In this document: one piece after another, positions 2,857 to 56,799 of the stretch | Layout: each line of letters begins with the position of its first letter | Numbering within the stretch: position 1 is the stretch's first letter | IMG/VR virus record: IMGVR_UViG_3300032235_001256 | Span: 1-62,462 of that record | Direction: 5' to 3' (one strand) | Origin: a virus | DNA: 62,462 nucleotides | Position numbers and translations under genes: made by a program | Notes under the pieces: generated by a model | Told to the model about the DNA's origin: nothing | Seen by the model: the letters and a program-made list of their open reading frames with translations, nothing else | Databases searched by the model: none

Positions 2857-4908
2857 ATGAAATTTCCTCTGTTTAAAGTCGCCGGCATACTGAAGGCCTC
2901 AGAAAAAATGGTTAGCACGGTGACGACCGCTCTATCTGATCTGGCAGTCCAGTACTATGGAAACACCGTGCTCGCCCCACGACTCGACGACGCCGAGCTA
3001 ACAATAGCTTCTTTTTACTCAGAGGTAAGCGATGACGCGCCCGGGCTCTTGCCAGATCTATCGAACCTAGGCAAACTCCTTATGAACGAGGTACTGCAAG
3101 ATGCTCCAAAGGCAGACGGCAAAGCACGATGGAAAGAGCTACTGGCGTCCTTAAACGAGAAAAAGCTTGCATTAACGCCAACCGATGAAGAATCTGATTA
3201 CACGTCTCTTCGCGATACGGTCGAGCAGATAACGCTGCTTTCTGGCGCGAAAGCGTCTAAAGGGCTGATGATTCCGACCCCGACAGCCGAAGCCATTGTG
3301 CCAAAAGCGGGTCTCGAAGCCCTAGCCAGCGCATTGAGGCAGATGTCAAAATATCCTATATCTAACATAGACAAAGATCAGAAGGCAAAGAATAAAGCGG
3401 CCCGTGCAGAGCTCCTATCCCAGTTATCCGACTCTTTGCAGGATTCAGTGCAAATAGCATTCAAACCTAATCGTGGGGCGCGCACTCAGCTGCTCAGTGC
3501 CGACGAATACTACTCCAAGCTTCAAGATCTGCATAATCGAACTAAAGCGTCCCTGGCCGCCGCCCTGGATAAAATAGATACGATACGCAGCAACTTTGGC
3601 ATAAGCGCTGGAAAAGGCAGTCAAAAAACCTATGCCAAGAAGCTAAGTGTAGACGAGGCATGCGATGGCAAAGAACTTAATCTAGCAAAAGCCGCAGAGG
3701 TCGAGTCACTGATGGTTGTCGTCGGCGCCTCGGCAAAAACTAATTCCGCTGCGTATGTGCCCATTTCTGCGTCACAGAAGGCTTCATCCGATATACCTAT
3801 CTTTTTTAATGCTAATGTTATTGGAGAACTAGTTCACTCGGCCGTAACCCAACATGCCGTAGCCGATCCGCTAGAGCTAAAAGAAATTATTGCCGAAGGA
3901 TGGCGAGACATAGTCTCCCATGAGCTTGGACATGTAATCCAGGCCATGCATAGCCGTACCTCGGGCGGGGCGAGCCAGATGCGCGGCAAAATGCGTTATG
4001 ATGCTCTTGATGACAGCGGCATACTAAAAAAAGATCTAAGCGAAGTTGTCAAAAACAGAGTGCGTGATCTCGCCGGCAAGACCAAGGCTCTCCAGCCGAC
4101 AGACAAAGACTATCATGCAAAAATAACGGACTTGGATAAAAAGAGACAGGAGCTGAGCGACGCCCCCCCTCTAGTAAAGGAGTTTGAAAAGCTTAGAGCC
4201 TCGTACGAACGAACGGCTGCCAATAAAGACGCATTCCTGCCGCGAATGAATCAGATAGCCGAGCGCCTTGTGCAAATTGGCCTGTTCCCGCATGGAATAG
4301 ATACAGAGGCACTGCGAATAGAGCATGATAGCCAGGATGCAGAATTCTTTACCGAGCTTGGCAACGCAGCCGGCGAGCTTGATCAGTACATGGCCGCTTG
4401 GGTGCCAGATGGCGTCATTAGTGGCATGGTAAAGGTCTTTGCAGGGCAGCTTGAAAAGGCGCAGCTGAAGGCATCCATCTCTGAACTCAAGAGGCAGCTG
4501 AAGGATGCCAGCACGGCAGTTGCCAGTGCAGCCGGAGACGGCAGTACGAAGACTGCGCTGTCAGGCATTGCATTTTTTAAGAATAATAACTATTTTGGAA
4601 GCACTCAAATAGCCGATCATGTCCGTTCGTCCGCAGACTTTATAAATAAAATGACAAAACAGCCTGACGAGACCGGCACTGACCGCGCATTCAGACTCGA
4701 GCAGGAGCAACTGAATATAGCCCTTGATCAGTATGAAGGAGAGCTATCGCAGATACTAGAAGTGGACCATCATAAGTTCTTTGAACATCTTTATTCTAGG
4801 TATAAAAATTACCGCGACGAGGTAGCGCTTGCCAAGTGGCAGCGTGCCGTCTCAGAGCTATATACGCATGCTATCTCCGCTAGAGATGCCAGGTTCAGGG
4901 TCGAGTAG
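2857..4908 (+). CDS. Putative zinc metallopeptidase with FPLFK N-terminal tag
   Basis: A 683-residue protein starting MKFPLFKVAG. The motif HELGH at residues 355-359 (His355, Glu356, His359), within a hydrophobic helix after IVS, is the zinc-binding signature of gluzincin/metzincin-type peptidases. A conserved third ligand could not be assigned. Flanking regions are long, charged and helical with predicted coiled coil (for example residues about 410-470 and 530-570). No signal peptide was seen. The FPLFK tag is shared with the next two genes and with the hydrolase at 19366, which suggests common routing into the virion (inference). The start has SD GGGAG, and the stop lies 7 bases before the next start. 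The protease substrate is unknown. Confidence 0.7.
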   Translation: MKFPLFKVAGILKASEKMVSTVTTALSDLAVQYYGNTVLAPRLDDAELTIASFYSEVSDDAPGLLPDLSNLGKLLMNEVLQDAPKADGKARWKELLASLNEKKLALTPTDEESDYTSLRDTVEQITLLSGAKASKGLMIPTPTAEAIVPKAGLEALASALRQMSKYPISNIDKDQKAKNKAARAELLSQLSDSLQDSVQIAFKPNRGARTQLLSADEYYSKLQDLHNRTKASLAAALDKIDTIRSNFGISAGKGSQKTYAKKLSVDEACDGKELNLAKAAEVESLMVVVGASAKTNSAAYVPISASQKASSDIPIFFNANVIGELVHSAVTQHAVADPLELKEIIAEGWRDIVSHELGHVIQAMHSRTSGGASQMRGKMRYDALDDSGILKKDLSEVVKNRVRDLAGKTKALQPTDKDYHAKITDLDKKRQELSDAPPLVKEFEKLRASYERTAANKDAFLPRMNQIAERLVQIGLFPHGIDTEALRIEHDSQDAEFFTELGNAAGELDQYMAAWVPDGVISGMVKVFAGQLEKAQLKASISELKRQLKDASTAVASAAGDGSTKTALSGIAFFKNNNYFGSTQIADHVRSSADFINKMTKQPDETGTDRAFRLEQEQLNIALDQYEGELSQILEVDHHKFFEHLYSRYKNYRDEVALAKWQRAVSELYTHAISARDARFRVE

Positions 4909-10914: not shown

Positions 10915-10926
10915 GGAGCCCTCTCT

Positions 10927-10986
10927 ATGGGGCCCGGTATGGGGCCCGGTATGGGGCCCGGTATGGGGCCCGGTATGGGGCCCGGT
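10927..10986. repeat. Five exact 12-bp tandem repeats ATGGGGCCCGGT
   Basis: Five uninterrupted identical copies start at 10927, 10939, 10951, 10963 and 10975, each holding the palindrome GGGGCCC/GGGCCC. They lie 13-72 bases upstream of the minus-strand start at 10914, between its SD and a TAAATA motif at 11004-11009, so they would fall in the 5' leader or operator region. Role unknown: protein-binding array, RNA structure or a slippage-prone expression tuner. Confidence 0.9.
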
Positions 10987-15171: not shown

Positions 15172-18100
15172 ATGACTTTTAGGCCATATACTGGAAAAGT
15201 CCGTCTTGGTAATTCAGAGACTTTTCTAGATATCTCTGAACTTTCAGATGGATACGTACTTTCTCGCGAGGGAAATCAGATCGTTGCAACGCTCATCGAT
15301 CAGAGCAAGCTATCTCTCGACACCCCGTCAAGGGACGCTGATGCCGCTACAAAGGGCTATGTTGACTCAGAGCTCAGCTCAGAGGAATCTGCTCGCATCG
15401 CTGGTGATGCCGGCCTTCAGAGCAGCCTGACGTCAGAAGCGTCAGCTCGCGTAGCTGCCGATGCTGCTCTTCAGGTCGAGATTGATACTGAAGAATCTGC
15501 TCGCGCTGCCGGCGATGCATCTCTGTCAACCAGCCTGGGCAATGAGGCCTCTACTCGTGCCGCCGCAGTCGTCGCTCTCCAGGGCAGCGTTGCCGGTGAA
15601 GAGTCTGCTCGTATTGCCGGCGACAGCAATCTGCAGACGCAGATCAACAACCTGCTCTCAAACGTCACTCCCGAGTCACTTGACTCGCTGAGCGAGATTG
15701 TCTCTGCCTTCCAGGATGCCGACGGCTACCTCCTTGAAGTGGTTCAGAACCTCTCGACCGGCTCAAGCTCGGCACTTGGCATCGAGATATCCGCCCGTGC
15801 CGCTGGCGACGCGGCCCTGCAGGCTGAGATTGACACGGAAGAGTCTGCCCGTGCAGCCGGCGATGCCGCGCTCACGACCAGCCTCGGTGTTGAGACCTCG
15901 GCCCGTATTGCCGCTGATGCAGCTCTCCAGGTCGAGATTGACACGGAGGAGTCTGCCCGTGCTGCCGGTGATGCAGCTCTTTCTACCAGCCTCGGGAACG
16001 AGGCCTCGGCCCGTGCTGCTGCTGATGCAGCTCTCCAGGTCGAGATTGATGCTGAGGAGTCTGCTCGTGCCGCTGGTGACGCTGCTCTCTCCACCAGCCT
16101 AGGAAACGAGGCGTCGGCTCGAATTGCTGCCGATGCGGCCCTGCAGGTAGAGATTGATGCCGAGGAATCCGCCCGCGCTGCTGGCGATTCCGCTCTTACG
16201 ACCAGTCTAGGTGGCGAGACTTCGGCTCGCGTGGCAGCTGATGCTGCCCTCCAGGTCGAGGTCGACGCCGAGGAGTCGGCACGTGCTGCAGGCGATGCGG
16301 CGCTTTCAACCAGCCTTGGTCTCGAGACATCTGCTCGCGTTGCTCAAGATGGTTATCTGCACGATCTCATTGTTGACGAGGTCGAGCGCGCCTCGGGAGC
16401 CGAGGAGGCTCTGCAGGGCAATATCGATGCCGAGGCGTCAGTTCGTGCTGCTGCCGTTATCTCTCTCCAGGGTGAGATTGATACTGAGGAGTCCGTCCGT
16501 GCTGCCCAGGACACAGTCCTACAGGGCAATATTAACACCGAGGCTTCCGCTCGCGTCGCTGCGGATGGCGCCCTGGCTAGCGATCTGGACCTAGAGGAGT
16601 CCGCTCGTATCGCTCAGGATCAGAATCTTCAGAACAGCATTGGCTCCGAGGCGTCTGCTCGTGCGGCTGCTGATGCGGGTCTTGCTGGCGATCTTGATAT
16701 TGAGGAGTCTGCTCGTATTGCTGGCGACAGCAATCTGCAGACGCAGATCAACAACTTGCTCTCAAACGTTGATCCGGCGGCACTCGACTCGCTCAGCGAG
16801 ATTATCTCTGCATTCCAGGATGCCGATGGCTATCTGCTTGACGTGGTTCAGAACCTCTCAACCGGATCAAGCTCAGCCCTTGGCCTTGAGACCTCGGCCC
16901 GTATCGCTGCCGATGCAGCGCTTCAGGTCGAAGTTGACGCCGAAGAGTCTGCTCGTGCGGCAGGTGATGCGGCTCTCACGACCAGCCTAGGTGTTGAGGC
17001 CTCTGCCCGCATCGCTGCTGATGCAGCCTTGCAGGTCGAGATTGACGCCGAAGAGTCCGCCCGTGCTGCCGGCGACGCTGCTCTCAGCATCAGCCTCGGC
17101 AACGAGACGTCTGCCCGCATTGCTGCCGATGCAGCGCTGCAGATCGAGATCGACACCGAGGAATCCGCCCGCGCTGCTGGCGATGCTGCGCTGTCAACCA
17201 GTCTCAGTAATGAGACGTCTGCTCGCGTAGCTGCCGATGCAACGAAGTTGGCGCTCTCTGGCGGCACCATGACCGGCGCCATTGCCATGGGCAATAACAA
17301 GGTCACTGGCCTTGCAGCAGGTACCGATGCTAGCGATGCAGTTACGCTTTCGCAGCTGCAGTCCGCCATCACGGACATCGATCCTGCCGGTAGCACTGGT
17401 CAGATCCAGTTCAATGCCGATGGCTACGACTTCGGTGCTAGCGCCAACCTGGCATGGGACAATGCGCAGAGCTCACTGTTCGTGGGTGGCGCAGCCAAGG
17501 TAAATGGCGTAGTCTCGCTAGGCGAGGTCGCCGAGGTTCCGGCCGGTGAGGCGGGTTATGGCAAGCTGTTTGCCAAGAGCGACGATGGCCTGTACTTCGT
17601 TGACTCAGAGGGCGTGAATCACTACGTCCTCCTCGACGGCTACGTTCAGCTGTCTGGTACGTCTGTAGCGCTCGACGCCAGCCCATCGCTGCCGGTTTAC
17701 CGCAGCCTGAGCATGACCGACGCCACGACCTTTACCACGTCAAATCTTGGTGTTGGTCGCTCTGTCACCGTTCGCCTCGTTGCGGGGGCGGCTCAGCGTG
17801 CGGTAACCTTCCCAGCCGGATGGAGCTGGCTCGGCGGTGCAGTACCAGCTGCTATACCGGCCAACAAGGTTGCGCTACTCTCGTTCATTGCCTATGGTCC
17901 AGCCGACACTGATGTAATTGCTGCTTGGTCGTATAACGACTCTGAGGCGATCAGCGGCGGCGGCACGACTGGCCAGGTTGCTTTCTACGATGGCATCCGC
18001 TCAGTCTCCGGCGAAGCCAACCTGACATGGGACGCCGAAAACGACCGCCTTGTGGTCGGTACCGTTGCGTCACCAGCTGCCAATCTACACGTAGGCGGCA

Positions 18101-18597
18101 GCGCCCAGGTAGATGGTGCGGTCACGATGAATGGTGCAGTAACCATCGGCGATGGTTATGCTGATGTAGTTACCGTAAATGGTACCGCTACATTTAACCA
18201 GCCGGTTTCGATGGGCTCCAACAAGATCACAAATCTTGCCACCCCCTCGAGCGACAATGATGCTGTCAACCTCGCCTTCCTTGAGTCACGTCGTCTGCTG
18301 ACGATTCAGACCATTGCTGGCTCTGGTAGCGTCAATGCGACAACTGATGTCGTGTTTGTGACCGGTTCCGGCAGCTCCGTCATCCGTCTCCCCGAGGCGG
18401 TTGCTGGCAACGCTGGCAAGGTAATCGTTGTCAAGAAGCGCAACTCCGGCGCCGAAGATAACGTTGGTACCGCTTCGGGCTCTGGCCAGGCCATTGATGG
18501 CGCAGTCGCCGACTCGTCATCAAACCTCCAGGAGCTGATGCTTCTGAATGAGTCGCTGACCTTTATCAGCGACGGCAGCAACTGGTTCATCATCTGA
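15172..18597 (+). CDS. Tail fibre protein 2 (coiled-coil ESARAAGD-repeat shaft)
   Basis: 1141 residues. It has the same N-terminal anchor as fibre 1 (RPYTGKVRLGNSETFLDI), then a long series of 24-26 residue repeats built on EESARAAGDAALSTSLG and ARIAADAALQVEID, a trimeric coiled-coil-like shaft. It is interrupted twice by a 45-residue module (NLLSNVTPESLDSLSEIV, then DADGYLL) at about 15640-15790 and 16740-16890. Residues 685 onward are beta-rich head sequence (GQIQFNADGYDFGAS). The last about 95 residues are a beta domain ending DGSNWFII that recurs in three other proteins here. SD GGAG sits before the ATG; a strong terminator follows. Confidence 0.88.
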   Translation: MTFRPYTGKVRLGNSETFLDISELSDGYVLSREGNQIVATLIDQSKLSLDTPSRDADAATKGYVDSELSSEESARIAGDAGLQSSLTSEASARVAADAALQVEIDTEESARAAGDASLSTSLGNEASTRAAAVVALQGSVAGEESARIAGDSNLQTQINNLLSNVTPESLDSLSEIVSAFQDADGYLLEVVQNLSTGSSSALGIEISARAAGDAALQAEIDTEESARAAGDAALTTSLGVETSARIAADAALQVEIDTEESARAAGDAALSTSLGNEASARAAADAALQVEIDAEESARAAGDAALSTSLGNEASARIAADAALQVEIDAEESARAAGDSALTTSLGGETSARVAADAALQVEVDAEESARAAGDAALSTSLGLETSARVAQDGYLHDLIVDEVERASGAEEALQGNIDAEASVRAAAVISLQGEIDTEESVRAAQDTVLQGNINTEASARVAADGALASDLDLEESARIAQDQNLQNSIGSEASARAAADAGLAGDLDIEESARIAGDSNLQTQINNLLSNVDPAALDSLSEIISAFQDADGYLLDVVQNLSTGSSSALGLETSARIAADAALQVEVDAEESARAAGDAALTTSLGVEASARIAADAALQVEIDAEESARAAGDAALSISLGNETSARIAADAALQIEIDTEESARAAGDAALSTSLSNETSARVAADATKLALSGGTMTGAIAMGNNKVTGLAAGTDASDAVTLSQLQSAITDIDPAGSTGQIQFNADGYDFGASANLAWDNAQSSLFVGGAAKVNGVVSLGEVAEVPAGEAGYGKLFAKSDDGLYFVDSEGVNHYVLLDGYVQLSGTSVALDASPSLPVYRSLSMTDATTFTTSNLGVGRSVTVRLVAGAAQRAVTFPAGWSWLGGAVPAAIPANKVALLSFIAYGPADTDVIAAWSYNDSEAISGGGTTGQVAFYDGIRSVSGEANLTWDAENDRLVVGTVASPAANLHVGGSAQVDGAVTMNGAVTIGDGYADVVTVNGTATFNQPVSMGSNKITNLATPSSDNDAVNLAFLESRRLLTIQTIAGSGSVNATTDVVFVTGSGSSVIRLPEAVAGNAGKVIVVKKRNSGAEDNVGTASGSGQAIDGAVADSSSNLQELMLLNESLTFISDGSNWFII

Positions 18598-24834: not shown

Positions 24835-25542
24835 ATGGAAACCGTTGCCTCTATAATGAAGCAGGTAGCATCATTGGCAGCAGCCAATGGTTTACCTAGG
24901 CCATTTATAGTTGGCGGTGCAGTCAGAAATATGATAATTGGAGCTGATCCGGTAGACTACGACATTACCTGTGGCAGCCCAGATAATCTTATTCTGGCAG
25001 ATCTGGTTGCGGAGTACTTTGGCGTGCCGATTTACGAAACAGGCAGCGGCTCCAAGAAGATGGTTGTGGATGGCATAGAGCTGGATTTCAGTCCGCACAT
25101 GCTCTACACAGAGCACAAGGATGGGCCATTCGCGTCCGAACTATACAGCCGGGACTTTACGATCAATACGATGATGATCGCCTGCGACGATGGCCACTTT
25201 GTTGATGTTTGCGGTGGGCTGGAAGATCTAAAAAGCAAAACTTTACGCTGTCCACTGAGCCCCGAGGTCACGTTTCGCGATCCGGTCAGGCTCCTGAGGG
25301 CGATAAAGTACATCGCAGAAGGAATGCAGCCAGAGCAGCAGCTTGAAGACGAGCTGATCAAGCAGTTCCATAAAATTGAAAAGATCAATCACAGACATGC
25401 TGGCAGGATTATAAACGATGCGATTCGAAAAAATCCTGAAATAGTCAGCTGGCTGTACGAGCACGATCTTATCAAGCACATACCAGTTACCAAGCTCGTA
25501 ATGAGGGAGCTGGCCCGCCAGAGGATGCTGCACCATGTCTGA
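24835..25542 (+). CDS. CCA-adding/poly(A) polymerase-type nucleotidyltransferase
   Basis: 235 residues with the class II head domain: GGAVRN at 27-32, metal-binding DYD at 41-43, third carboxylate in ELDFS (about Asp84), RDFTINTM at 106-113 and DPVRLLRAIKYI at 150-160. Class II tRNA nucleotidyltransferases add or repair the tRNA 3'-CCA; this copy is short, keeping the catalytic and neck parts but little body/tail. The substrate could be tRNA ends damaged during infection, or another RNA. It sits oddly inside the packaging operon and overlaps the next gene by eight bases, so it is co-expressed late. Confidence 0.8.
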   Translation: METVASIMKQVASLAAANGLPRPFIVGGAVRNMIIGADPVDYDITCGSPDNLILADLVAEYFGVPIYETGSGSKKMVVDGIELDFSPHMLYTEHKDGPFASELYSRDFTINTMMIACDDGHFVDVCGGLEDLKSKTLRCPLSPEVTFRDPVRLLRAIKYIAEGMQPEQQLEDELIKQFHKIEKINHRHAGRIINDAIRKNPEIVSWLYEHDLIKHIPVTKLVMRELARQRMLHHV

Positions 25543-27915: not shown

Positions 27916-30846
27916 ATGGTAAGCCCTAAGAAAGTCAAGGCATTAACGTCAAAAGACATCTTCAATGAAATCAAGAGAGATATCTCGATCATTGATCCCG
28001 TTAGCTTTGCAGAAAATAACCTGACCATAGACGGAAAACCATTCGACCTATCCGGGTCAGGATGGAAGTACATGGCAGAAATATACCGGGCAGTATCCGC
28101 TCAGGTAGAAAATAAAGAGGCCAAACCGATAGTTCTGCTAAAAGGCCGTCAGGTCGGCGCCACTATCATGGCCGGAGTGCTGAGCCTGCACATGGCCAGC
28201 TCTGGACTATACAGCACGGAATCAGGCAAGCCACCCATTCGAGTGATGCACGTTTTCCCAGATCTCAAGCGATGCGGCGTCTATGCAAAAGATATTCTTG
28301 CAAATCTAATAAGCGGCGCCAAGGATAACTACGTTGGCAAACGAGCTCTAAAGGTTACTAGGACGGTAGATCTAGAAGATACACAGACACAGAAAAACTT
28401 TATCGGAATGAGCAAGATTCGCGTCGACTCGATAGGCAAGTCCGGCGACCGTATTCGTGGTAGCACGCAGGATGTTTTGCTTTACGACGAGTGTTTCGTA
28501 GGTAACACATTCATCAAGACGGAAACTGGCAAGATAAAGATAAGCAAAATATACGACATGTTTGCTGCAGGAAAAGAGCTGCCTATCGTCAAGACGATAA
28601 ATGAGCAGACAATGGAGTTTGAGCACAAGAGGGTAGTCCACGCATGGAGGCGCGAACCCAAGCCTGTATTTGAGCTAAGATGCGGCAAGTACAGGGCGAA
28701 ATGCACTAAAGATCACAAGTTTTTGACCGAAGAGGGGTGGGTAGAGGCCCAGAATCTTAAGGTTGGAGATTTTGTAATTGGAGATCCCGGCAATAAATCA
28801 CAGTACCTTCGTGCTATAAATGATGACCAGCTCCAGATCGTACTAGGCTCGTTCCTGGGAGATGGAAATCTTCAAGAATACGCCAATAACTCCTATCGAC
28901 TTCGCGTCATGCATGGTTCTCGCCAGGAAAACTATGCAAAATGGAAGGCTGAGATGTTTGGGGTAGAATGTGTATTTGTTCCAGAACAGGGCAAGTACAA
29001 GAAGCCGGGATGGTGGTTCGCGACAAAGGGTTTCGGAATTCCGAACTGTTCTTTCCCGAAGAATCAGAAAAACAGCTGTCCACAGTGGGTTATCGACAAG
29101 ATAGACTGGAGAGGCGTCGCTATATGGTTCATGGATGACGGAAGTAACAATGCCAAAACTAAGCGCCACATAACCCTGCACACAAATTCTTTTGATGAAG
29201 ATTCGGTAGATAGGCTGGTTGCCAAGTTAATAAGCATGGGAGTCGCGTGCAAAAAAGCCATGGTATCTGGCAAGTATTTTGTCATAAAGATAAACAAGGA
29301 AGGGTCGGATGTTTTCCTTAATAAGGTTGCGCCATACCTACACTCAGATCTGCACTACAAGACTGATATTGTATGTGACACCGGCGATCTGCATTCTTGG
29401 GATTCGCAGTTTAAACCATATTCGTACAACGTAGTATCGGCCTTCAAGGATCTAAACCGCGAGGAAGCTGTTTACGATATAGAGGTCAAAGATAATCACA
29501 ACTTTATCGTTACGGGTCGCAATAGTAGCCAACTGCAAGACGGAGGTATTCAGGCCAAGAACTGCCAGGACATGACCCGCAGCGCTATAGAAAATACGCT
29601 AAAGGTTCTAACTGCAACCCCATACGGTGCTCCTACCAAGGGCGTACAGGTATTTTTCGGCACTCCCAAGCACTCCGGGTCTTTCTTCTGGACAATGTGG
29701 GAGGACTCAGACCAGCGCTTTTATCAGTTGCGATGCAAGCACTGCGATCACTACTTTTTCCTGTATAATCTAGAAAATGATGACTGGAATGAGATATGGA
29801 TCAAAGAAAACCTAATCAAGTGCCCATCATGCCTTAAGACGCAGGACAAGCGCGAAGCGGTCGACCTGGGCCGCTGGATATCGACCCGTCCAACTAATGC
29901 GAAGGGCGATCCGCAGAAGTATATAGGCTATCACTTCAATATGATGCTCAGCCCGCTGTTCACAAAAGAAAACGTTCTCGAGTACTGGCCGCAGCACAAC
30001 AAGAATGCATCGGAGCGAGCATGGCGAAACGAGACAAAAGGGCAGTTCTATTCGGCTAGCGAGGTTCCAATTACCCTTGAGGAGCTGTATGCTACTGCCC
30101 TGGACGAGTCCAGGGGCGTAGCAAAAAGTATAACAAACCCAGCAGGAAAGAATTTTTTTCTTGGCATGGACTGGGGCGAGAAGGTAGAGTCGGATGCAGA
30201 TCTAGAGGTAAAGCGCGGCAAGTCTTTCACCTGTGCGGTTATAATGTCGGTTGATCATACGGGTGTGTTGACCGTAGAAAATGCCGTAAGGCTAAAGAAG
30301 AACGACCCAGACTACAAAATGAATGTTGTTCGCAAGCTAATAGCTGATTTTCACATAGACCAGTCAGCAGCCGACTTCTACTATGGCAACGATTTTGTTC
30401 GGCTAGTGCAGCACAATGAAGGACTTAAAGATAAATTCCTTGGCTGCACAAACCTGAGCAACTCCAAGCGTGCCTTCTCGTATGACGAAAAAGACCTAAT
30501 GGTAGGCGTGAACAAGGATCAGGTGCTTGACGAGATATTTGCGCTATTTAAACGCGGTCGAATCAAGATCCCGGCAAAGGGAGACAGCCTTGAGCTACTG
30601 GGCTGGCTTGTTGATCACATCACTTCAATGGAAACCCATACGAAGACGAAAGATGGCATAGTACTTAAGACGTACAAAAAGGGGGTCATCCAGAACGACG
30701 GACTAATGGCACTGATGTATGCTTATACAGCTTACAAGTTCATGGTAACTCGCAAATTTACTGAGCAGAGTACCGAGGGTGTAAACAAAAAGAAGCAGGA
30801 TGACGTAGTCGTTCCCATCGTTGGCTATATCCCAAGAATGCGCTGA
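27916..30846 (+). CDS. terL: Terminase large subunit interrupted by an intein
   Basis: A 976-residue precursor; removal of the 357-residue intein (residues 193-549) leaves a 619-residue terminase. ATPase: Walker A-like KGRQVGAT at 76-83 (Ala where the usual P-loop Lys stands, as in some terminases, with a Lys earlier), Walker B VLLYDE at 187-192, coupling motif FFGTP. A zinc ribbon follows (CKHC and CPSC). Nuclease domain begins at FLGMDWG (catalytic Asp), with acidic residues further on. The ATPase-zinc-nuclease order resembles lambda gpA-type terminases. The enzyme translocates DNA into the prohead and cuts concatemers, together with the portal encoded next. SD GGAGAAAG; the portal start is eight bases past the stop. 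Confidence 0.92.
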   Translation: MVSPKKVKALTSKDIFNEIKRDISIIDPVSFAENNLTIDGKPFDLSGSGWKYMAEIYRAVSAQVENKEAKPIVLLKGRQVGATIMAGVLSLHMASSGLYSTESGKPPIRVMHVFPDLKRCGVYAKDILANLISGAKDNYVGKRALKVTRTVDLEDTQTQKNFIGMSKIRVDSIGKSGDRIRGSTQDVLLYDECFVGNTFIKTETGKIKISKIYDMFAAGKELPIVKTINEQTMEFEHKRVVHAWRREPKPVFELRCGKYRAKCTKDHKFLTEEGWVEAQNLKVGDFVIGDPGNKSQYLRAINDDQLQIVLGSFLGDGNLQEYANNSYRLRVMHGSRQENYAKWKAEMFGVECVFVPEQGKYKKPGWWFATKGFGIPNCSFPKNQKNSCPQWVIDKIDWRGVAIWFMDDGSNNAKTKRHITLHTNSFDEDSVDRLVAKLISMGVACKKAMVSGKYFVIKINKEGSDVFLNKVAPYLHSDLHYKTDIVCDTGDLHSWDSQFKPYSYNVVSAFKDLNREEAVYDIEVKDNHNFIVTGRNSSQLQDGGIQAKNCQDMTRSAIENTLKVLTATPYGAPTKGVQVFFGTPKHSGSFFWTMWEDSDQRFYQLRCKHCDHYFFLYNLENDDWNEIWIKENLIKCPSCLKTQDKREAVDLGRWISTRPTNAKGDPQKYIGYHFNMMLSPLFTKENVLEYWPQHNKNASERAWRNETKGQFYSASEVPITLEELYATALDESRGVAKSITNPAGKNFFLGMDWGEKVESDADLEVKRGKSFTCAVIMSVDHTGVLTVENAVRLKKNDPDYKMNVVRKLIADFHIDQSAADFYYGNDFVRLVQHNEGLKDKFLGCTNLSNSKRAFSYDEKDLMVGVNKDQVLDEIFALFKRGRIKIPAKGDSLELLGWLVDHITSMETHTKTKDGIVLKTYKKGVIQNDGLMALMYAYTAYKFMVTRKFTEQSTEGVNKKKQDDVVVPIVGYIPRMR
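28492..29562 (+). other. Intein with LAGLIDADG homing endonuclease inside TerL
   Basis: 357 residues, in frame. Block A begins CFVGNTFIKTETG (Cys1). Block B has the TxxH motif in CTKDHKFLT. Two LAGLIDADG motifs are LGSFLGDG (Asp124) and AIWFMDDG (Asp215-Asp216), both with intact acidic residues, so the endonuclease may be active. Block F is VYDIEVKDNHNFIV. The C-terminus reads GGIQAKN, followed by Cys+1 of the extein, so the usual penultimate His is Lys. Insertion is directly after the Walker B DE pair, so only spliced protein can be an active motor. Splicing is inferred from intact blocks A, B, F and the terminal Asn/Cys. Confidence 0.9.
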
Positions 30847-49195: not shown

Positions 49196-49552
49196 GTGAG
49201 CTTATTCGACTTATTATTTCGCAAGAGCTGTGCAGTGGAGTCTCACCCTGCCGATGGGTACCTGGCACAGCCGCCAGGGCACGACACCATTGTGCGCCCA
49301 GGCACATATCGTTTTAATAATCGCCAGGTAGATATTCTCGGTTTTCTGCCCAATGGCAAAATGAGCGCTACTCTATTCCTATGTCATGCGGGCTCGGGAA
49401 GCTGCTCAGAGTGGGGCACCTACGAGTTTTCTAGGGTATCGTACGACAAATCCCAAGAGATATGGGAAGCTATTGTTGGCAAGTCAGGCATAGTTATTCA
49501 TGTGACAAAACACCACGGCGAAGTAGCGCTGAAAATAGAGGTTGACAGATGA
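49196..49552 (+). CDS. Hypothetical protein (GTG start)
   Basis: 118 residues from GTG 49196, with SD AGGTGAG. Small beta-rich protein (TYRFNNRQVDILGFLPNGKM, GTYEFSRVSYDKSQEIW). It overlaps thyA by four bases (ATGA) and so belongs to the nucleotide-metabolism cassette by coupling. No family recognised. Confidence 0.7.
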   Translation: MSLFDLLFRKSCAVESHPADGYLAQPPGHDTIVRPGTYRFNNRQVDILGFLPNGKMSATLFLCHAGSGSCSEWGTYEFSRVSYDKSQEIWEAIVGKSGIVIHVTKHHGEVALKIEVDR

Positions 49553-50406
49553 CTGAAGCTTCCTATCTAAATATAATGCGTCAGATTCTTGATGAAGGGG
49601 TTGACGTAGAAAATGATCGCACAGGAGTTGGAACCCGAGGCATCTTTGGCGCTCAGATGGCATTTGACATGGATGACGGGTTTCCCCTACTGACCACTCG
49701 TCGCATTGCGTTTCGCATTGCATTCGAAGAGATGATGTGGTTTATCAGGGGGCAGACAGATTCCAAGATCCTTGAGCAGAAAAAAATCAACATTTGGAGG
49801 GGTAACACTACACGTGAATTCCTGGATGCAAAAGGACTGGCTCATCTCCCGGAAGGTGACGCAGGAAAGAACTACAGCTGGCAGCTACGCAACTTCAACG
49901 GCAGCCATGTGGGCTCCGGCTACGATCAGTTGGCCGCAATTGTATCTGGAATAAAGACAGATCCATCCAGTCGCCGCCATTTTGTTAGCTACTGGAATCC
50001 GCAGCAGGTGCTGACAGAGGCAGCTCTGCCGCCCTGCCATGTAAGCTGGGCAGTGCAGATTGCCGGAGGCAGGCTAAATCTATCCTTCCAGATGCGGTCT
50101 AATGATTTCTATCTAGGAAATCCGACAAATATCGCAGGATACGGGTTCCTGCTGCACGCCCTCGCCAATTTGGCCGGCTATCGTCCCGGCCGACTTGTGT
50201 TCCAGGGATCTGATGTGCATCTGTATAAGAATCAGTTAGATAACGCAATGATACAAGTCACTCGCGAGCCGCTGCCGTTGCCAGGATTTCGCATAAACAA
50301 ACATCTGTCTACTTTAGATGACCTGCTTGCTCTGCAGTATTCTGATGTAGAGGTAGTGGGGTATGCGCACCACCCAGATTTGCCAAAGGTTGAGATGGCG
50401 ATATGA
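49549..50406 (+). CDS. thyA: Thymidylate synthase
   Basis: 285 residues with all main ThyA landmarks: NDRTGVGTRGIFG, FPLLTTRR, FEEMMWFIRGQTDSKIL, W..N..REFLD, the catalytic Cys163 in LPPCHVSWAVQ, QMRSNDFYLGNPTNIAGYGF (Asn194, the dUMP-recognising position, is kept, so it should use dUMP rather than dCMP) and SDVHLYKNQLDNA. It converts dUMP and methylene-THF to dTMP and DHF for phage DNA synthesis. Overlaps folA by four bases, giving a matched pair in which DHFR regenerates THF. Confidence 0.95.
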   Translation: MTEASYLNIMRQILDEGVDVENDRTGVGTRGIFGAQMAFDMDDGFPLLTTRRIAFRIAFEEMMWFIRGQTDSKILEQKKINIWRGNTTREFLDAKGLAHLPEGDAGKNYSWQLRNFNGSHVGSGYDQLAAIVSGIKTDPSSRRHFVSYWNPQQVLTEAALPPCHVSWAVQIAGGRLNLSFQMRSNDFYLGNPTNIAGYGFLLHALANLAGYRPGRLVFQGSDVHLYKNQLDNAMIQVTREPLPLPGFRINKHLSTLDDLLALQYSDVEVVGYAHHPDLPKVEMAI

Positions 50407-50855
50407 GTAAATTGATCGGGATAGCTGCAGTATCGGAGAATGGCGTAATTGGTCGTGGCAACTCCCTGCCGTGGCACCTGCCAGAGGACTTGGCCTGGTT
50501 CAAATTCGTAACCCTGGGCCATACGCTTGTGATGGGTCGCGCCACCTATAATTCCATAGGCCGCCCACTTCCTGGCAGAAAAACGTATATTCTCACGAGA
50601 TCGCCATCCATCCCCTCGGAGATCAGCAGCCTGGCCGAAGCGCACTCGGACTCAGGCTTCATCTTCTTGTGCGGCGGCTCAGAGGTATATGCACAGTTTT
50701 TATTTGACTGTGACGAGTTGCTGATTACTCATGTAAAGCAAGAGGTTGACGGCGACAAGTATTTTCCTTATTTTCAACACATGTTCCATGCGACAGAAAC
50801 ACTCCGGTCAAACGATGAGTATGATATTATCAGATATGCGAGGAATCCACGATGA
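50403..50855 (+). CDS. folA: Dihydrofolate reductase
   Basis: 150 residues, clearly DHFR: IAAVSENGVIGRGNSLPWHL, the active-site acid Asp29 in PEDLAWFK, VMGRATYNSIGRPLPGRK, TRS, LCGGSEVYAQF and DGDKYFPYF. It reduces dihydrofolate produced by ThyA. Slightly shorter than the about 160 residues of E. coli DHFR. ATGA overlaps on both sides place it in the 49196-51229 cassette. Confidence 0.95.
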   Translation: MSKLIGIAAVSENGVIGRGNSLPWHLPEDLAWFKFVTLGHTLVMGRATYNSIGRPLPGRKTYILTRSPSIPSEISSLAEAHSDSGFIFLCGGSEVYAQFLFDCDELLITHVKQEVDGDKYFPYFQHMFHATETLRSNDEYDIIRYARNPR

Positions 50856-52434: not shown

Positions 52435-54912
52435 ATGACTTTTAGACCATATGCCCGTAAGGTTAGGCTTGGTGATACCGAGACCTTCCTTGATATTTCA
52501 AATCTTCCAGACGGTTACGTCCTCAGCCGCAAGGGCTCAGAGATCGTAGCTGAGCTCATCGGCCAGGACAAGCTCGGTCTTGCCTCGCCCGTAAACACCA
52601 ATGACGCGGCCACGAAGGGTTACGTTGATGGCGAGATGGCCTCCGAGGTCTCCTCCCGTATTGCTGGCGACGCCGGCGTTCAGGCCAACCTGACGTCAGA
52701 GATCTCATCCCGCGTTGCGGGCGATGCCGCTCTCCAGGTTGAGATCGACACTGAAGAGTCTGCCCGTGCTGCCGGCGACGCCGCGCTCAGCACCAGCCTC
52801 GGCAATGAGACCTCGTCCCGCGTTGCTGGCGACGCAGCCCTCGCGACCAGCCTCGGTAACGAAGCCTCGTCACGCGTTGCTGGCGATGCCACCGTACAGA
52901 CCAACCTTGACAGCGAGACCTCATCCCGCATTGCTGGTGATGGCAACCTGCAGGGTCAGATCAACAACCTACTCTCGAACGTCACCCCTGAGTCACTTGA
53001 CTCCCTCAGCGAGATCGTCTCCGCGTTCCAGGACGCTGATGGCTATCTGCTTGATGTGGTCCAGAACCTCTCGACCGGTTCGAGCTCAGCTCTTGGTCTC
53101 GAGACCTCTGCCCGCATTGCCGCTGATGGCGTTCTCCAGGGCAACGTTGACAGCGAAGCCTCGGCTCGCGCCGCCGGTGATGCCGCCCTGACCACCAGCC
53201 TCGGTGTCGAGACCTCTGCCCGTATCGCTGCTGACGCGGCCCTACAGGTCGAGATTGATACCGAAGAGTCCGCTCGTGCTGCTGGCGATGCCGCCCTCAG
53301 CACCAGCCTCGGCAACGAAGCCTCGGCCCGCGCTGCTGCCGATGCAGCCCTTCAGGTTGAGATCGACACTGAAGAGTCTGCTCGTGCTGCCGGCGATGCC
53401 GCGCTCAGCACCAGCCTTGGCAACGAGACCTCAGCCCGTGTAGCTGCCGATGCCGCTCTCCAGGTCGAGATCGACACGGAAGAGTCTGCCCGCGCTGCTG
53501 GCGACGCTGCTCTCACGACCAGCCTCGGCAATGAGACCTCGGCCCGTGTAGCTGCCGACGCAGCTCTCCAGGTTGAAGTTGACACCGAGGAGTCTGCTCG
53601 TGCCGCTGGCGATGCCGCCCTCCAGGTCGAGATCGACACTGAGGAGTCGGCCCGCGCTGCTGCCGACGCTGCTCTGCAGGTCGAGATTGATACCGAAGAG
53701 TCAGCTCGCGCTGCGGGTGATGCTGCCCTCAGCACCAGCCTCGGCAACGAGACATCGGCCCGTGTAGCTGCTGACGCCGCTCTCCAGGTCGAAATCGACA
53801 CCGAAGAGTCGGCCCGCGCTGCGGGTGACGCTGCTCTCACGACCAGCCTCGGCAACGAGACCTCGGCTCGTGTGGCTGCCGATGGCGTTCTCCAGGGCAA
53901 CGTTGACAGCGAGGCCTCATCCCGCATTGCTGGCGACAGCAACCTGCAGGGTCAGATCAACAACCTGCTCTCGAACGTTGATCCGGCGTCCCTCGACTCG
54001 CTCAGCGAGATTGTCTCCGCGTTCCAGGACGCTGATGGCTATCTACTTGACGTAGTCCAGAACCTCTCAACCGGCTCAAGCTCGGCTCTTGGTCTCGAGA
54101 CCTCGGCCCGCATTGCCGCTGATGGCGTTCTCCAAGGCAACGTTGACAGCGAAGTCTCGGCTCGCATTGCCGGTGACGCTGCTCTCACGACCAGCCTTGG
54201 CGGTGAGACCTCCGCCCGTATCGCCGCTGACGCGGCCCTACAGGTCGAGATTGATGCCGAAGAGTCAGCTCGCGCTGCAGGTGATGCTGCTCTCAGCACC
54301 AGCCTCGGTAACGAGACATCGGCCCGTGTAGCTGCGGATGCTGCTCTGCAGGTTGAGATTGACACGGAAGAGTCTGCCCGTGCTGCCGGCGATGCCGCGC
54401 TCACGACCAGCCTCGGTGTCGAGACCTCGGCTCGCGTAGCTGCTGATGGCGTCCTCCAGGGCAACATCGACAGCGAAGTCTCGGCTCGCATTGCCGGTGA
54501 CGCTGCTCTCACGACCAGCCTCGGTACCGAAGCTTCGGCCCGCGCTGCTGCCGATGTCACTCTCACGAACAACCTGAACAGTGAGATCTCGGCTCGCATT
54601 GCTGGTGATATCGCCACCCGTCTCCTGGCGGTTCGCGAAGTCACTGCGAGCGGCGCGATCAACGCCAGCGATGACCTCGTGCTCATCAACGGCACCGGCA
54701 GCACGGTCGTTACCCTGCCAACCGCAGTCGGTAACTCCGGCAAGAAGATTATCGTCAAGAAGATCGATAACGCTGTCAGTGGGCCAAATGATGCGGACAC
54801 TGTCGCTGCCGCCAGCGGCGAGCAGATTGATGGTGGCTCAGAAGTCAAGATCTATCTGCAGTACGAAGCGGTTACGCTCGTTTCGAACGGCGCCAAGTGG
54901 CTGATCGTCTGA
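52435..54912 (+). CDS. Tail fibre protein 3 (coiled-coil ESARAAGD-repeat shaft)
   Basis: 825 residues with SD AGGAG. It has the same anchor as fibres 1 and 2 (RPYARKVRLGDTETFLDISN), the same shaft repeats as fibre 2 (EESARAAGDAALSTSLG; ARVAADAALQVEID), and two copies of the NLLSNV-DSLSEIV-DADGYLL module (about 52960-53100 and 53960-54100). It goes straight from the shaft into the shared terminal beta domain (about residues 730-825, ending NGAKWLIV) and lacks fibre 2's extra beta-rich head. DNA of the repeats is closely similar to fibre 2, so recombination between the two genes is likely. Codon use is strongly C-ending. Confidence 0.88.
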   Translation: MTFRPYARKVRLGDTETFLDISNLPDGYVLSRKGSEIVAELIGQDKLGLASPVNTNDAATKGYVDGEMASEVSSRIAGDAGVQANLTSEISSRVAGDAALQVEIDTEESARAAGDAALSTSLGNETSSRVAGDAALATSLGNEASSRVAGDATVQTNLDSETSSRIAGDGNLQGQINNLLSNVTPESLDSLSEIVSAFQDADGYLLDVVQNLSTGSSSALGLETSARIAADGVLQGNVDSEASARAAGDAALTTSLGVETSARIAADAALQVEIDTEESARAAGDAALSTSLGNEASARAAADAALQVEIDTEESARAAGDAALSTSLGNETSARVAADAALQVEIDTEESARAAGDAALTTSLGNETSARVAADAALQVEVDTEESARAAGDAALQVEIDTEESARAAADAALQVEIDTEESARAAGDAALSTSLGNETSARVAADAALQVEIDTEESARAAGDAALTTSLGNETSARVAADGVLQGNVDSEASSRIAGDSNLQGQINNLLSNVDPASLDSLSEIVSAFQDADGYLLDVVQNLSTGSSSALGLETSARIAADGVLQGNVDSEVSARIAGDAALTTSLGGETSARIAADAALQVEIDAEESARAAGDAALSTSLGNETSARVAADAALQVEIDTEESARAAGDAALTTSLGVETSARVAADGVLQGNIDSEVSARIAGDAALTTSLGTEASARAAADVTLTNNLNSEISARIAGDIATRLLAVREVTASGAINASDDLVLINGTGSTVVTLPTAVGNSGKKIIVKKIDNAVSGPNDADTVAAASGEQIDGGSEVKIYLQYEAVTLVSNGAKWLIV

Positions 54913-55940: not shown

Positions 55941-55992
55941 ATCTATTGCGATGTAGTTCTTAGCAGCGCTATTCCTGCCAGAGGTGCGTAGG

Positions 55993-56799
55993 ATGAAGAG
56001 AGTTAACGTGGCACTTGCTGGCTCCGGTCAACTTTACCCTGCCTTTGTTGGCGCTCTAATATGCCTAAAAGAAAGAGGCATCGAGATAGTAGAAATAAGT
56101 GGAACATCTGGTGGCGCCATCATTGCTGCCGCGATATCCGCTGGTCTCGACCCCAAGGTCGACATTGCCGCCCTCGTCAAAGCAACCTTGCCTGTCAAGA
56201 GTAAGCTTTTTGATTTTTCTCTGCGCTCTATTCTGTGTAGGTGGGGCCTTATTCGCGGCAATAAAATAGAGAATAAGTTTAACCAATATCTTCATAAGAC
56301 ACTGGGAGAGTCCAGGATTCCGCTCCACATCACTGCCTCTAATATATCAGCTCGAAAGCTCAGGATATTCAGCTCTGCTTCCGATCCAGGTTTTAGCACT
56401 GCAAGGGCTATAAGGGCGTCGATATCGTTGCCGTTTATATTTGAGCCGGTTGTTATAGATGGCGATCTCTATGTGGATGGTGGCTGGATGAAGAATATGC
56501 CATCAGATGTGTTCTCTAACGGTCTTCCTGTCCTAGCTTTTAAGACAACTCCGCATTCCGGCATTGTAACAGGCATAACTGCGCTAAAGAACTATCTTGT
56601 TGCCCTTTTTGAGTCAGTCATAGATGGCGACAGAGCACATCGGCACCAGGAGTACATCTACAAAATACATATCCCAACGCGCTTCAATCCTCTGAATTTC
56701 AATGTAAATGAGGTCGAAGTAGATTTTATGATCCAAGAGGGTTATCGGGCTGCGTCCGAGTGGTTGGAAATGAATGAAGAAAAAATCTTCACAATGTGA
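55993..56799 (+). CDS. Patatin-like phospholipase
   Basis: 268 residues from ATG 55993 (SD AGAGGTG). Oxyanion loop AGSGQ at 9-13, nucleophile Ser39 in GTSGGA (GxSxG), and Asp162 in VDGG complete the patatin Ser-Asp dyad. IRASISLPFIFEP and DGDLYVDGGW are standard family landmarks. No signal peptide. Patatins hydrolyse acyl chains of phospholipids; in a phage this could weaken the inner membrane at lysis, aid entry if packaged, or act on host lipid signalling. It starts a new unit after a terminator, and its last 26 bases overlap the HNH gene. Confidence 0.88.
   Translation: MKRVNVALAGSGQLYPAFVGALICLKERGIEIVEISGTSGGAIIAAAISAGLDPKVDIAALVKATLPVKSKLFDFSLRSILCRWGLIRGNKIENKFNQYLHKTLGESRIPLHITASNISARKLRIFSSASDPGFSTARAIRASISLPFIFEPVVIDGDLYVDGGWMKNMPSDVFSNGLPVLAFKTTPHSGIVTGITALKNYLVALFESVIDGDRAHRHQEYIYKIHIPTRFNPLNFNVNEVEVDFMIQEGYRAASEWLEMNEEKIFTM

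What the first reader, a model, noticed from the sequence alone, without database searches (positions are those of the whole stretch)
28492..29562. TerL intein inserted right after the Walker B DE, with unusual Lys-Asn end
The intein splits VLLYDE from CQDM, the catalytic centre of the packaging ATPase, so virion production depends on splicing. Both LAGLIDADG motifs are intact. The C-terminal splice junction reads AKN/C instead of the usual HN/C, and block F is separated from it by a longer loop (GRNSSQLQDGG). Loss of the penultimate His often slows Asn cyclisation, so splicing could be slow or conditional and delay packaging.
Basis: partly seen in the sequence, partly recalled or inferred. 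Interest (0 to 1): 0.6.

Follow-up and report, generated by a model that had tools for sequence, protein, structure and literature searches.

The report
Mobile self-splicing insert in packaging motor
A phage DNA-packaging motor gene is interrupted, in the middle of its ATP-cleaving site, by a mobile self-excising protein insert that probably still works although it lacks a usual catalytic histidine; it is a new example of a known kind of element.

Summary
The intein is real and its borders are exact. TerL ORF 27916-30846 carries a 357-residue intein (28492-29562) between VLLYDE and CQDM. Intein-free viral relatives L013 and L014 read VLLYDE/CQDM with near-identical exteins. It is a class 1 HINT intein with an I-SceI-like two-motif LAGLIDADG nuclease; penultimate Lys is confirmed. 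Lys is present in all six distinct copies of the same extein clade, including an endonuclease-free mini-intein. Copies are under purifying selection and have recently moved between phages: intein dS 0.12 against extein dS about 1.4-1.6 in one pair. All other catalytic residues are invariant or nearly so, and the long F-G loop also occurs in relatives that keep His. Published phage inteins already include penultimate Gly, Lys and Ser; the tested Gly one splices fully and is slowed by His. Beyond the finding: related inteins sit at the same DE/C point (Walker B) in TerL, PhoH, UvrD-like, ResIII/DEAD, DinG-like and clamp-loader ATPases; the number of cross-family jumps is unresolved. New member of a known kind; moderate interest.

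The parts
27916..30846 (+). TerL precursor ORF, 976 aa, GpA-type large terminase interrupted by an intein
   Evidence: PF05876 GpA_ATPase, phrog_675 terminase large subunit 1.7e-49
28141..28164 (+). probable Walker A, KGRQVGAT (TerL residues 76-83)
   Evidence: invariant in alignment A4; assignment as Walker A is by motif
28474..28491 (+). Walker B VLLYDE (TerL residues 187-192), end of the N-extein
   Evidence: D191 and E192 invariant in A4; inside the PF05876 match of the intein-free homologue
28492..29562 (+). intein, 357 aa, Cys1 to Asn357
   Evidence: exact borders from intein-free L013/L014; Pfam and NCBIfam intein models
28639..28641 (+). His50 of the intein, shared by all 5 Lys-type rows of A3 and only 1 of 37 His-type rows; possible compensating residue
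   Evidence: role is a hypothesis only
28705..28716 (+). block B TKDH (Thr72, His75)
   Evidence: invariant in 48 inteins
28834..29313 (+). LAGLIDADG_2 homing endonuclease domain (intein residues 115-274)
   Evidence: Pfam PF03161 1.6e-21; structural match to I-SceI Z 20.8, 2.3 A over 184 residues
28837..28866 (+). first LAGLIDADG motif, ending GDG (Asp124)
   Evidence: conservation
29116..29145 (+). second LAGLIDADG motif VAIWFMDDGS (Asp215/216)
   Evidence: conservation
29470..29505 (+). block F VYDIEVKDNHNF (Asp329 = F:4, His336 = F:13)
   Evidence: His336 invariant, Asp329 in 46 of 48
29515..29547 (+). extended F-G loop GRNSSQLQDGG
   Evidence: family-wide feature, also in His-Asn relatives
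29548..29565 (+). block G IQAKN plus Cys+1 of the C-extein (penultimate Lys356, terminal Asn357)
29563..30843 (+). C-extein of TerL, CQDM onward
   Evidence: 99.5% identical to intein-free L013

Best explanation
A mobile class 1 intein with an active-looking LAGLIDADG endonuclease sits directly after the Walker B Asp-Glu of a GpA-type phage TerL. The precursor should splice autocatalytically: Cys1 N-S shift, transesterification to Cys+1, Asn357 cyclisation and a final S-N shift. In the Asn step the invariant block F His336, perhaps helped by Lys356, does the work normally shared with a penultimate His. Its endonuclease lets it home into empty TerL alleles of related phages. Penultimate Lys is a stable variant of this lineage, tolerated and probably co-adapted, not a sign of decay. 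Shown: borders, motifs, empty alleles, purifying selection, recent horizontal transfer. Inferred: splicing and homing activity, and the role of each residue.
For: Empty alleles fix both junctions. Cys1, Thr72, His75, His336 and Asn357 are invariant in 48 relatives while position 356 is H 37, S 6, K 5. Window against L002: intein dN/dS 0.079, endonuclease part 0.095. Mosaic history: L003 against L011, intein dS 0.12 but extein dS about 1.4-1.6; window against L011, extein about 91% DNA identity but intein about 67%, with the change at the intein edges. Model pLDDT 91.7, pTM 0.89, matching the Ssp DnaB intein at Z 21.2, 1.3 A over 134 residues, and I-SceI at Z 20.8. Literature: non-His penultimate residues are compatible with efficient splicing, and the block F His can substitute (PMC4031507; PMC5050341).
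Against: No splicing or cleavage assay exists. The precedent intein that was tested has Gly, not Lys. Some published inteins do improve when His is restored (PMC4031507, PMC5050341). The sequences are uncultured contigs.
Confidence: 0.82

Rival explanations
1. One reading: loss of the penultimate His makes Asn cyclisation slow or conditional, so splicing delays packaging and acts as a timing switch.
For: Penultimate His normally assists Asn cyclisation; some inteins speed up when His is restored (PMC4031507). A precursor with a split Walker B should be inactive. TerL acts late, so a delay might be harmless.
Against: The long loop is family-wide and independent of His. The tested phage intein without His splices completely and is slowed by His (PMC5050341). 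His-, Ser- and Lys-type copies sit at the same TerL site in related phages with no visible difference in context. No regulatory element was found or tested.
Confidence: 0.12
2. The intein is decaying and splices poorly or not at all; the contigs carry defective or dying TerL.
For: Loss of a usually conserved residue.
Against: Intact ORF and invariant catalytic residues, low dN/dS in intein and extein, recent transfers of Lys-type copies, Lys also in the endonuclease-free mini-intein L015.
Confidence: 0.03
3. The true C-terminal junction is elsewhere, for example GRN/S in the loop.
For: An Asn followed by Ser lies at residues 344-345.
Against: Intein-free L013/L014 join DE directly to CQDM, which leaves only AKN/C.
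Confidence: 0.01

Closest known systems
TerL1-e intein of mycobacteriophages (Kelley et al. 2016, PMC5050341)
   Same: Intein in the Walker B motif of a phage TerL; TerL inteins tested there splice and some cut intein-free alleles
   Different: Host TerL is Terminase_1, here GpA-type; that survey of mycobacteriophages lists only Terminase_1, Terminase_6 and a terminase-like host. Exact junctions were not compared
Mycobacteriophage inteins with penultimate Gly, Lys or Ser (PMC5050341)
   Same: Class 1 inteins lacking the penultimate His; Lys is among the residues listed
   Different: The one tested is the RDF intein with Gly; no Lys-type TerL Walker B intein is described in the passages read
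I-SceI / I-WcaI LAGLIDADG endonucleases
   Same: Fold and double-motif arrangement of the nuclease domain
   Different: Here nested in an intein; about 20-23% identity; target site not tested
Ssp DnaB and Mtu RecA inteins (solved structures)
   Same: HINT splicing fold, 1.3-1.8 A over about 135 residues
   Different: About 25% identity; other host proteins; the extended F-G loop of this family is not typical of canonical inteins

Membership tests
Class 1 intein | In-frame insert absent from homologues, with exact junctions | tested here: met
   L013, L014 intein-free
Class 1 intein | Cys/Ser/Thr at +1 and Cys/Ser at position 1; block B TxxH; terminal Asn | tested here: met
   Cys1, Thr72/His75, Asn357, Cys+1
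Class 1 intein | HINT fold | tested here: met
   AlphaFold model and structural matches
Class 1 intein | Penultimate His (usual, but not defining; absent in about 5% of functional inteins) | tested here: not met
   Lys356; frequency from PMC4031507
Class 1 intein | Autocatalytic splicing | not testable with these tools
   needs expression of the precursor
LAGLIDADG homing endonuclease (I-SceI-like) | Two LAGLIDADG motifs with acidic catalytic residues, and the fold | tested here: met
   PF03161, conservation, I-SceI match
LAGLIDADG homing endonuclease (I-SceI-like) | Cuts the intein-free allele and homes | not testable with these tools
   indirect support only: mosaic intein/extein divergence
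GpA-type large terminase | PF05876 ATPase domain across the Walker B region | tested here: met
   L013 residues 52-297, 2.9e-13
GpA-type large terminase | Overall terminase fold | tested here: inconclusive
   AlphaFold model unusable, pLDDT 35

The most novel reading that the evidence does not exclude
The window's intein belongs to a phage-centred intein lineage with an extended F-G loop whose endonuclease has repeatedly carried it into the same Walker B codon pair (GAY GAR / TGY) of non-orthologous P-loop ATPases: terminases, PhoH, UvrD-like, ResIII/DEAD, DinG-like and clamp-loader proteins. Spread would follow a protein motif rather than gene orthology. Within it, Lys-type members evolved a different Asn-cyclisation catalyst, perhaps with His50.
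Probability: 0.3. Interest if true: 0.6.

Novelty: new member of a known kind. Interest (0 to 1): 0.4.

Why it matters
It gives a well-bordered natural case with empty, His-, Ser- and Lys-type alleles at one TerL site, suited to testing how inteins live without the penultimate His. The phages also show sharp intein-only mosaicism, a direct record of homing between phages. If the wider Walker B pattern holds, it would show how mobile inteins cross between unrelated ATPase genes through a shared motif.

Tried and rejected
Alternative junction GRN/S: rejected by the empty alleles. Loop as a sign of impaired splicing: rejected, since it also occurs in His-Asn relatives. L001 first looked like a gut-phage TerL relative; reading it showed a different ATPase, UvrD-like by its motifs, with the intein at the same DE/CQD point. 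Tree-based proof of repeated jumps between ATPase families: not obtained. AU tests do not reject TerL inteins (p 0.51) or SF1 inteins (p 0.68) as single clades, though the long-loop Walker B group separates from RecA/PolA-site inteins at 99/94. Single or double origin of Lys: unresolved; L015 joins the window clade at only 86/61. Conserved DNA target beyond codon needs: bases around the junction are mostly what the DE/CQ codons demand, so nothing could be concluded. Structure of mature TerL: model useless. A limited literature search (7 searches) found no description of a Walker B intein family across ATPase families, but most subscription papers are not held, so this absence is weak.

Full report
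What is there. The window is a 62,462-base virus record without tRNA genes found. The ORF 27916-30846 encodes 976 residues. Its outer parts match phage large terminases (phrog_675, 1.7e-49; PF05876 GpA_ATPase) and its middle matches Intein_splicing and LAGLIDADG_2. It is the only intein found in the record.

Borders. A scan of viral contigs gave 17 relatives. L013 and L014 encode the same TerL without the insert; the N-extein is 100% and the C-extein 99.5% identical, and they read VLLYDE/CQDM. This fixes the intein as 28492-29562, Cys1 to Asn357, with Cys as +1 residue. L016 and L017 are also intein-free but have Ile at +1; more distant intein-free homologues have Val or Tyr there.

Anatomy. 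Cys1, block B Thr72 and His75, block F Asp329 and His336, and Asn357 are present. Across 48 related inteins Cys1, Thr72, His75, His336 and Asn357 are invariant and Asp329 is kept in 46, while position 356 is His in 37, Ser in 6 and Lys in 5. The AlphaFold model of the intein is good (pLDDT 91.7, pTM 0.89). It matches solved inteins over residues 1-357 (Ssp DnaB, Z 21.2, 1.3 A over 134 residues) and I-SceI over residues 102-292 (Z 20.8, 2.3 A). It is therefore a class 1 intein with an I-SceI-like double-motif endonuclease.

The Lys-Asn end and the loop. At the same TerL site, relatives have AKN (window, L002-L004, L009, L011, L018), LKN (L015, a 161-residue mini-intein without endonuclease), LHN (L005), SHN (L008) and TSN (L007, L010, L012). 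All share the long loop with a GG between blocks F and G. Among 54 distinct inteins compared, the tail after NHNF is about 18 residues in most TerL members and 9 in RecA-site inteins such as L083. So the loop is a family feature and is not linked to loss of His. The penultimate residue changes at least six times by parsimony over the tree, for example Ser in L024 whose sisters L036 and L037 keep His. All Lys-type rows also have His50, against 1 of 37 His-type rows; this may be shared ancestry or compensation and is only a lead.

Is it functional? Between window and L002 the intein has dN/dS 0.079 (endonuclease part 0.095) and the extein 0.01-0.02. Extein and intein histories differ sharply. 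L003 and L011 have extein dS about 1.4-1.6 but intein dS 0.12. Window and L011 have exteins about 91% identical in DNA but inteins about 67%, with the change at the intein edges. Window and L002 have intein dS 0.20 against extein 0.41-0.46. Inteins have thus moved between related phages recently, and the moving copies are Lys-type. In an essential packaging gene this is hard to reconcile with poor splicing. These are simple counting estimates, and dS above 1 is imprecise.

Literature. A review states that about 5% of functional inteins have another residue than His at the penultimate position and that restoring His helps some and harms others (PMC4031507). A survey of mycobacteriophage inteins reports TerL inteins in Walker A, Walker B and the C-motif, efficient splicing of those tested, cleavage of intein-free alleles, penultimate Gly, Lys or Ser in some, and a Gly-type RDF intein that splices fully but becomes slow once His is introduced (PMC5050341).

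Interpretation. The position right after the Walker B Asp-Glu makes the unspliced motor almost surely inactive, so dependence on splicing is well founded (inference). Slow or conditional splicing is possible but has no positive support here. The best explanation is an efficient, mobile intein whose Asn step relies on block F His336, with Lys356 tolerated or helpful.

Beyond the finding. A search with six of these inteins returned 80 loci. Together with the earlier loci they gave 54 distinct inteins, 49 of them at hhhhDE/C followed by Q or H. The list is biased because it is ranked by similarity to the query. Pfam confirms the hosts as GpA-type TerL (L023, L013), PhoH (L031, L047, L048, L064), UvrD-like (L050, L055), ResIII/DEAD (L042, L058), DinG-like with Helicase_C_2 (L051, L057) and a DNA polymerase III delta-prime-type clamp loader (L067). 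In cellular genome contigs the same DE/C point is seen in TerL-like, PhoH-like and DnaX-like flanks (L099, L100, L106; by motif only). The tree separates the long-loop Walker B group from RecA/PolA-site inteins (99/94), but short-loop Walker B members fall on the other side. AU tests do not reject single clades for TerL or SF1 inteins. Movement between ATPase families must have happened, since these host proteins are not orthologous, but its number and direction are unknown.

Verdict. Confirmed observation; interpretation partly supported; new member of a known kind; interest 0.4, mainly for the allelic series and the Walker B pattern.

Noticed in passing
L026, L028, L070 (TerL ORFs): TerL genes with two inteins about 8 extein residues apart: an upstream one lacking Cys1, looking like class 3 (Cys in block F, ends PTHN/T), and the Walker B one.
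   Followed up: partly
L016, L017 at the TerL Walker B site: Intein-free alleles 90% identical to the window's TerL with Ile instead of Cys at +1, which could not serve as splicing nucleophile and might resist invasion.
   Followed up: partly
L061, L062 at 4001-4423: A 141-residue mini-intein of the same group in a small helix-turn-helix-like protein, not at a Walker B motif.
   Followed up: no
window 15172-18597 and 52435-54912: Two long proteins with in-frame 54/108-base tandem repeats (ARAAGDAAL...IDxEES type), probably tail fibres or other coiled-coil structural proteins.
   Followed up: no
window 24835-25542: PolyA_pol head domain protein (CCA-adding-enzyme-like nucleotidyltransferase) encoded a few genes before TerL, although ARAGORN finds no tRNA in the window.
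   Followed up: no
window 49549-50855: Adjacent thymidylate synthase and dihydrofolate reductase genes.
   Followed up: no
window 55984-56799: Patatin-like phospholipase gene in the phage genome.
   Followed up: no
window 10926-10986: Perfect 12-base tandem repeat, 5.1 copies, within a minus-strand ORF, encoding TGPH repeats.
   Followed up: no
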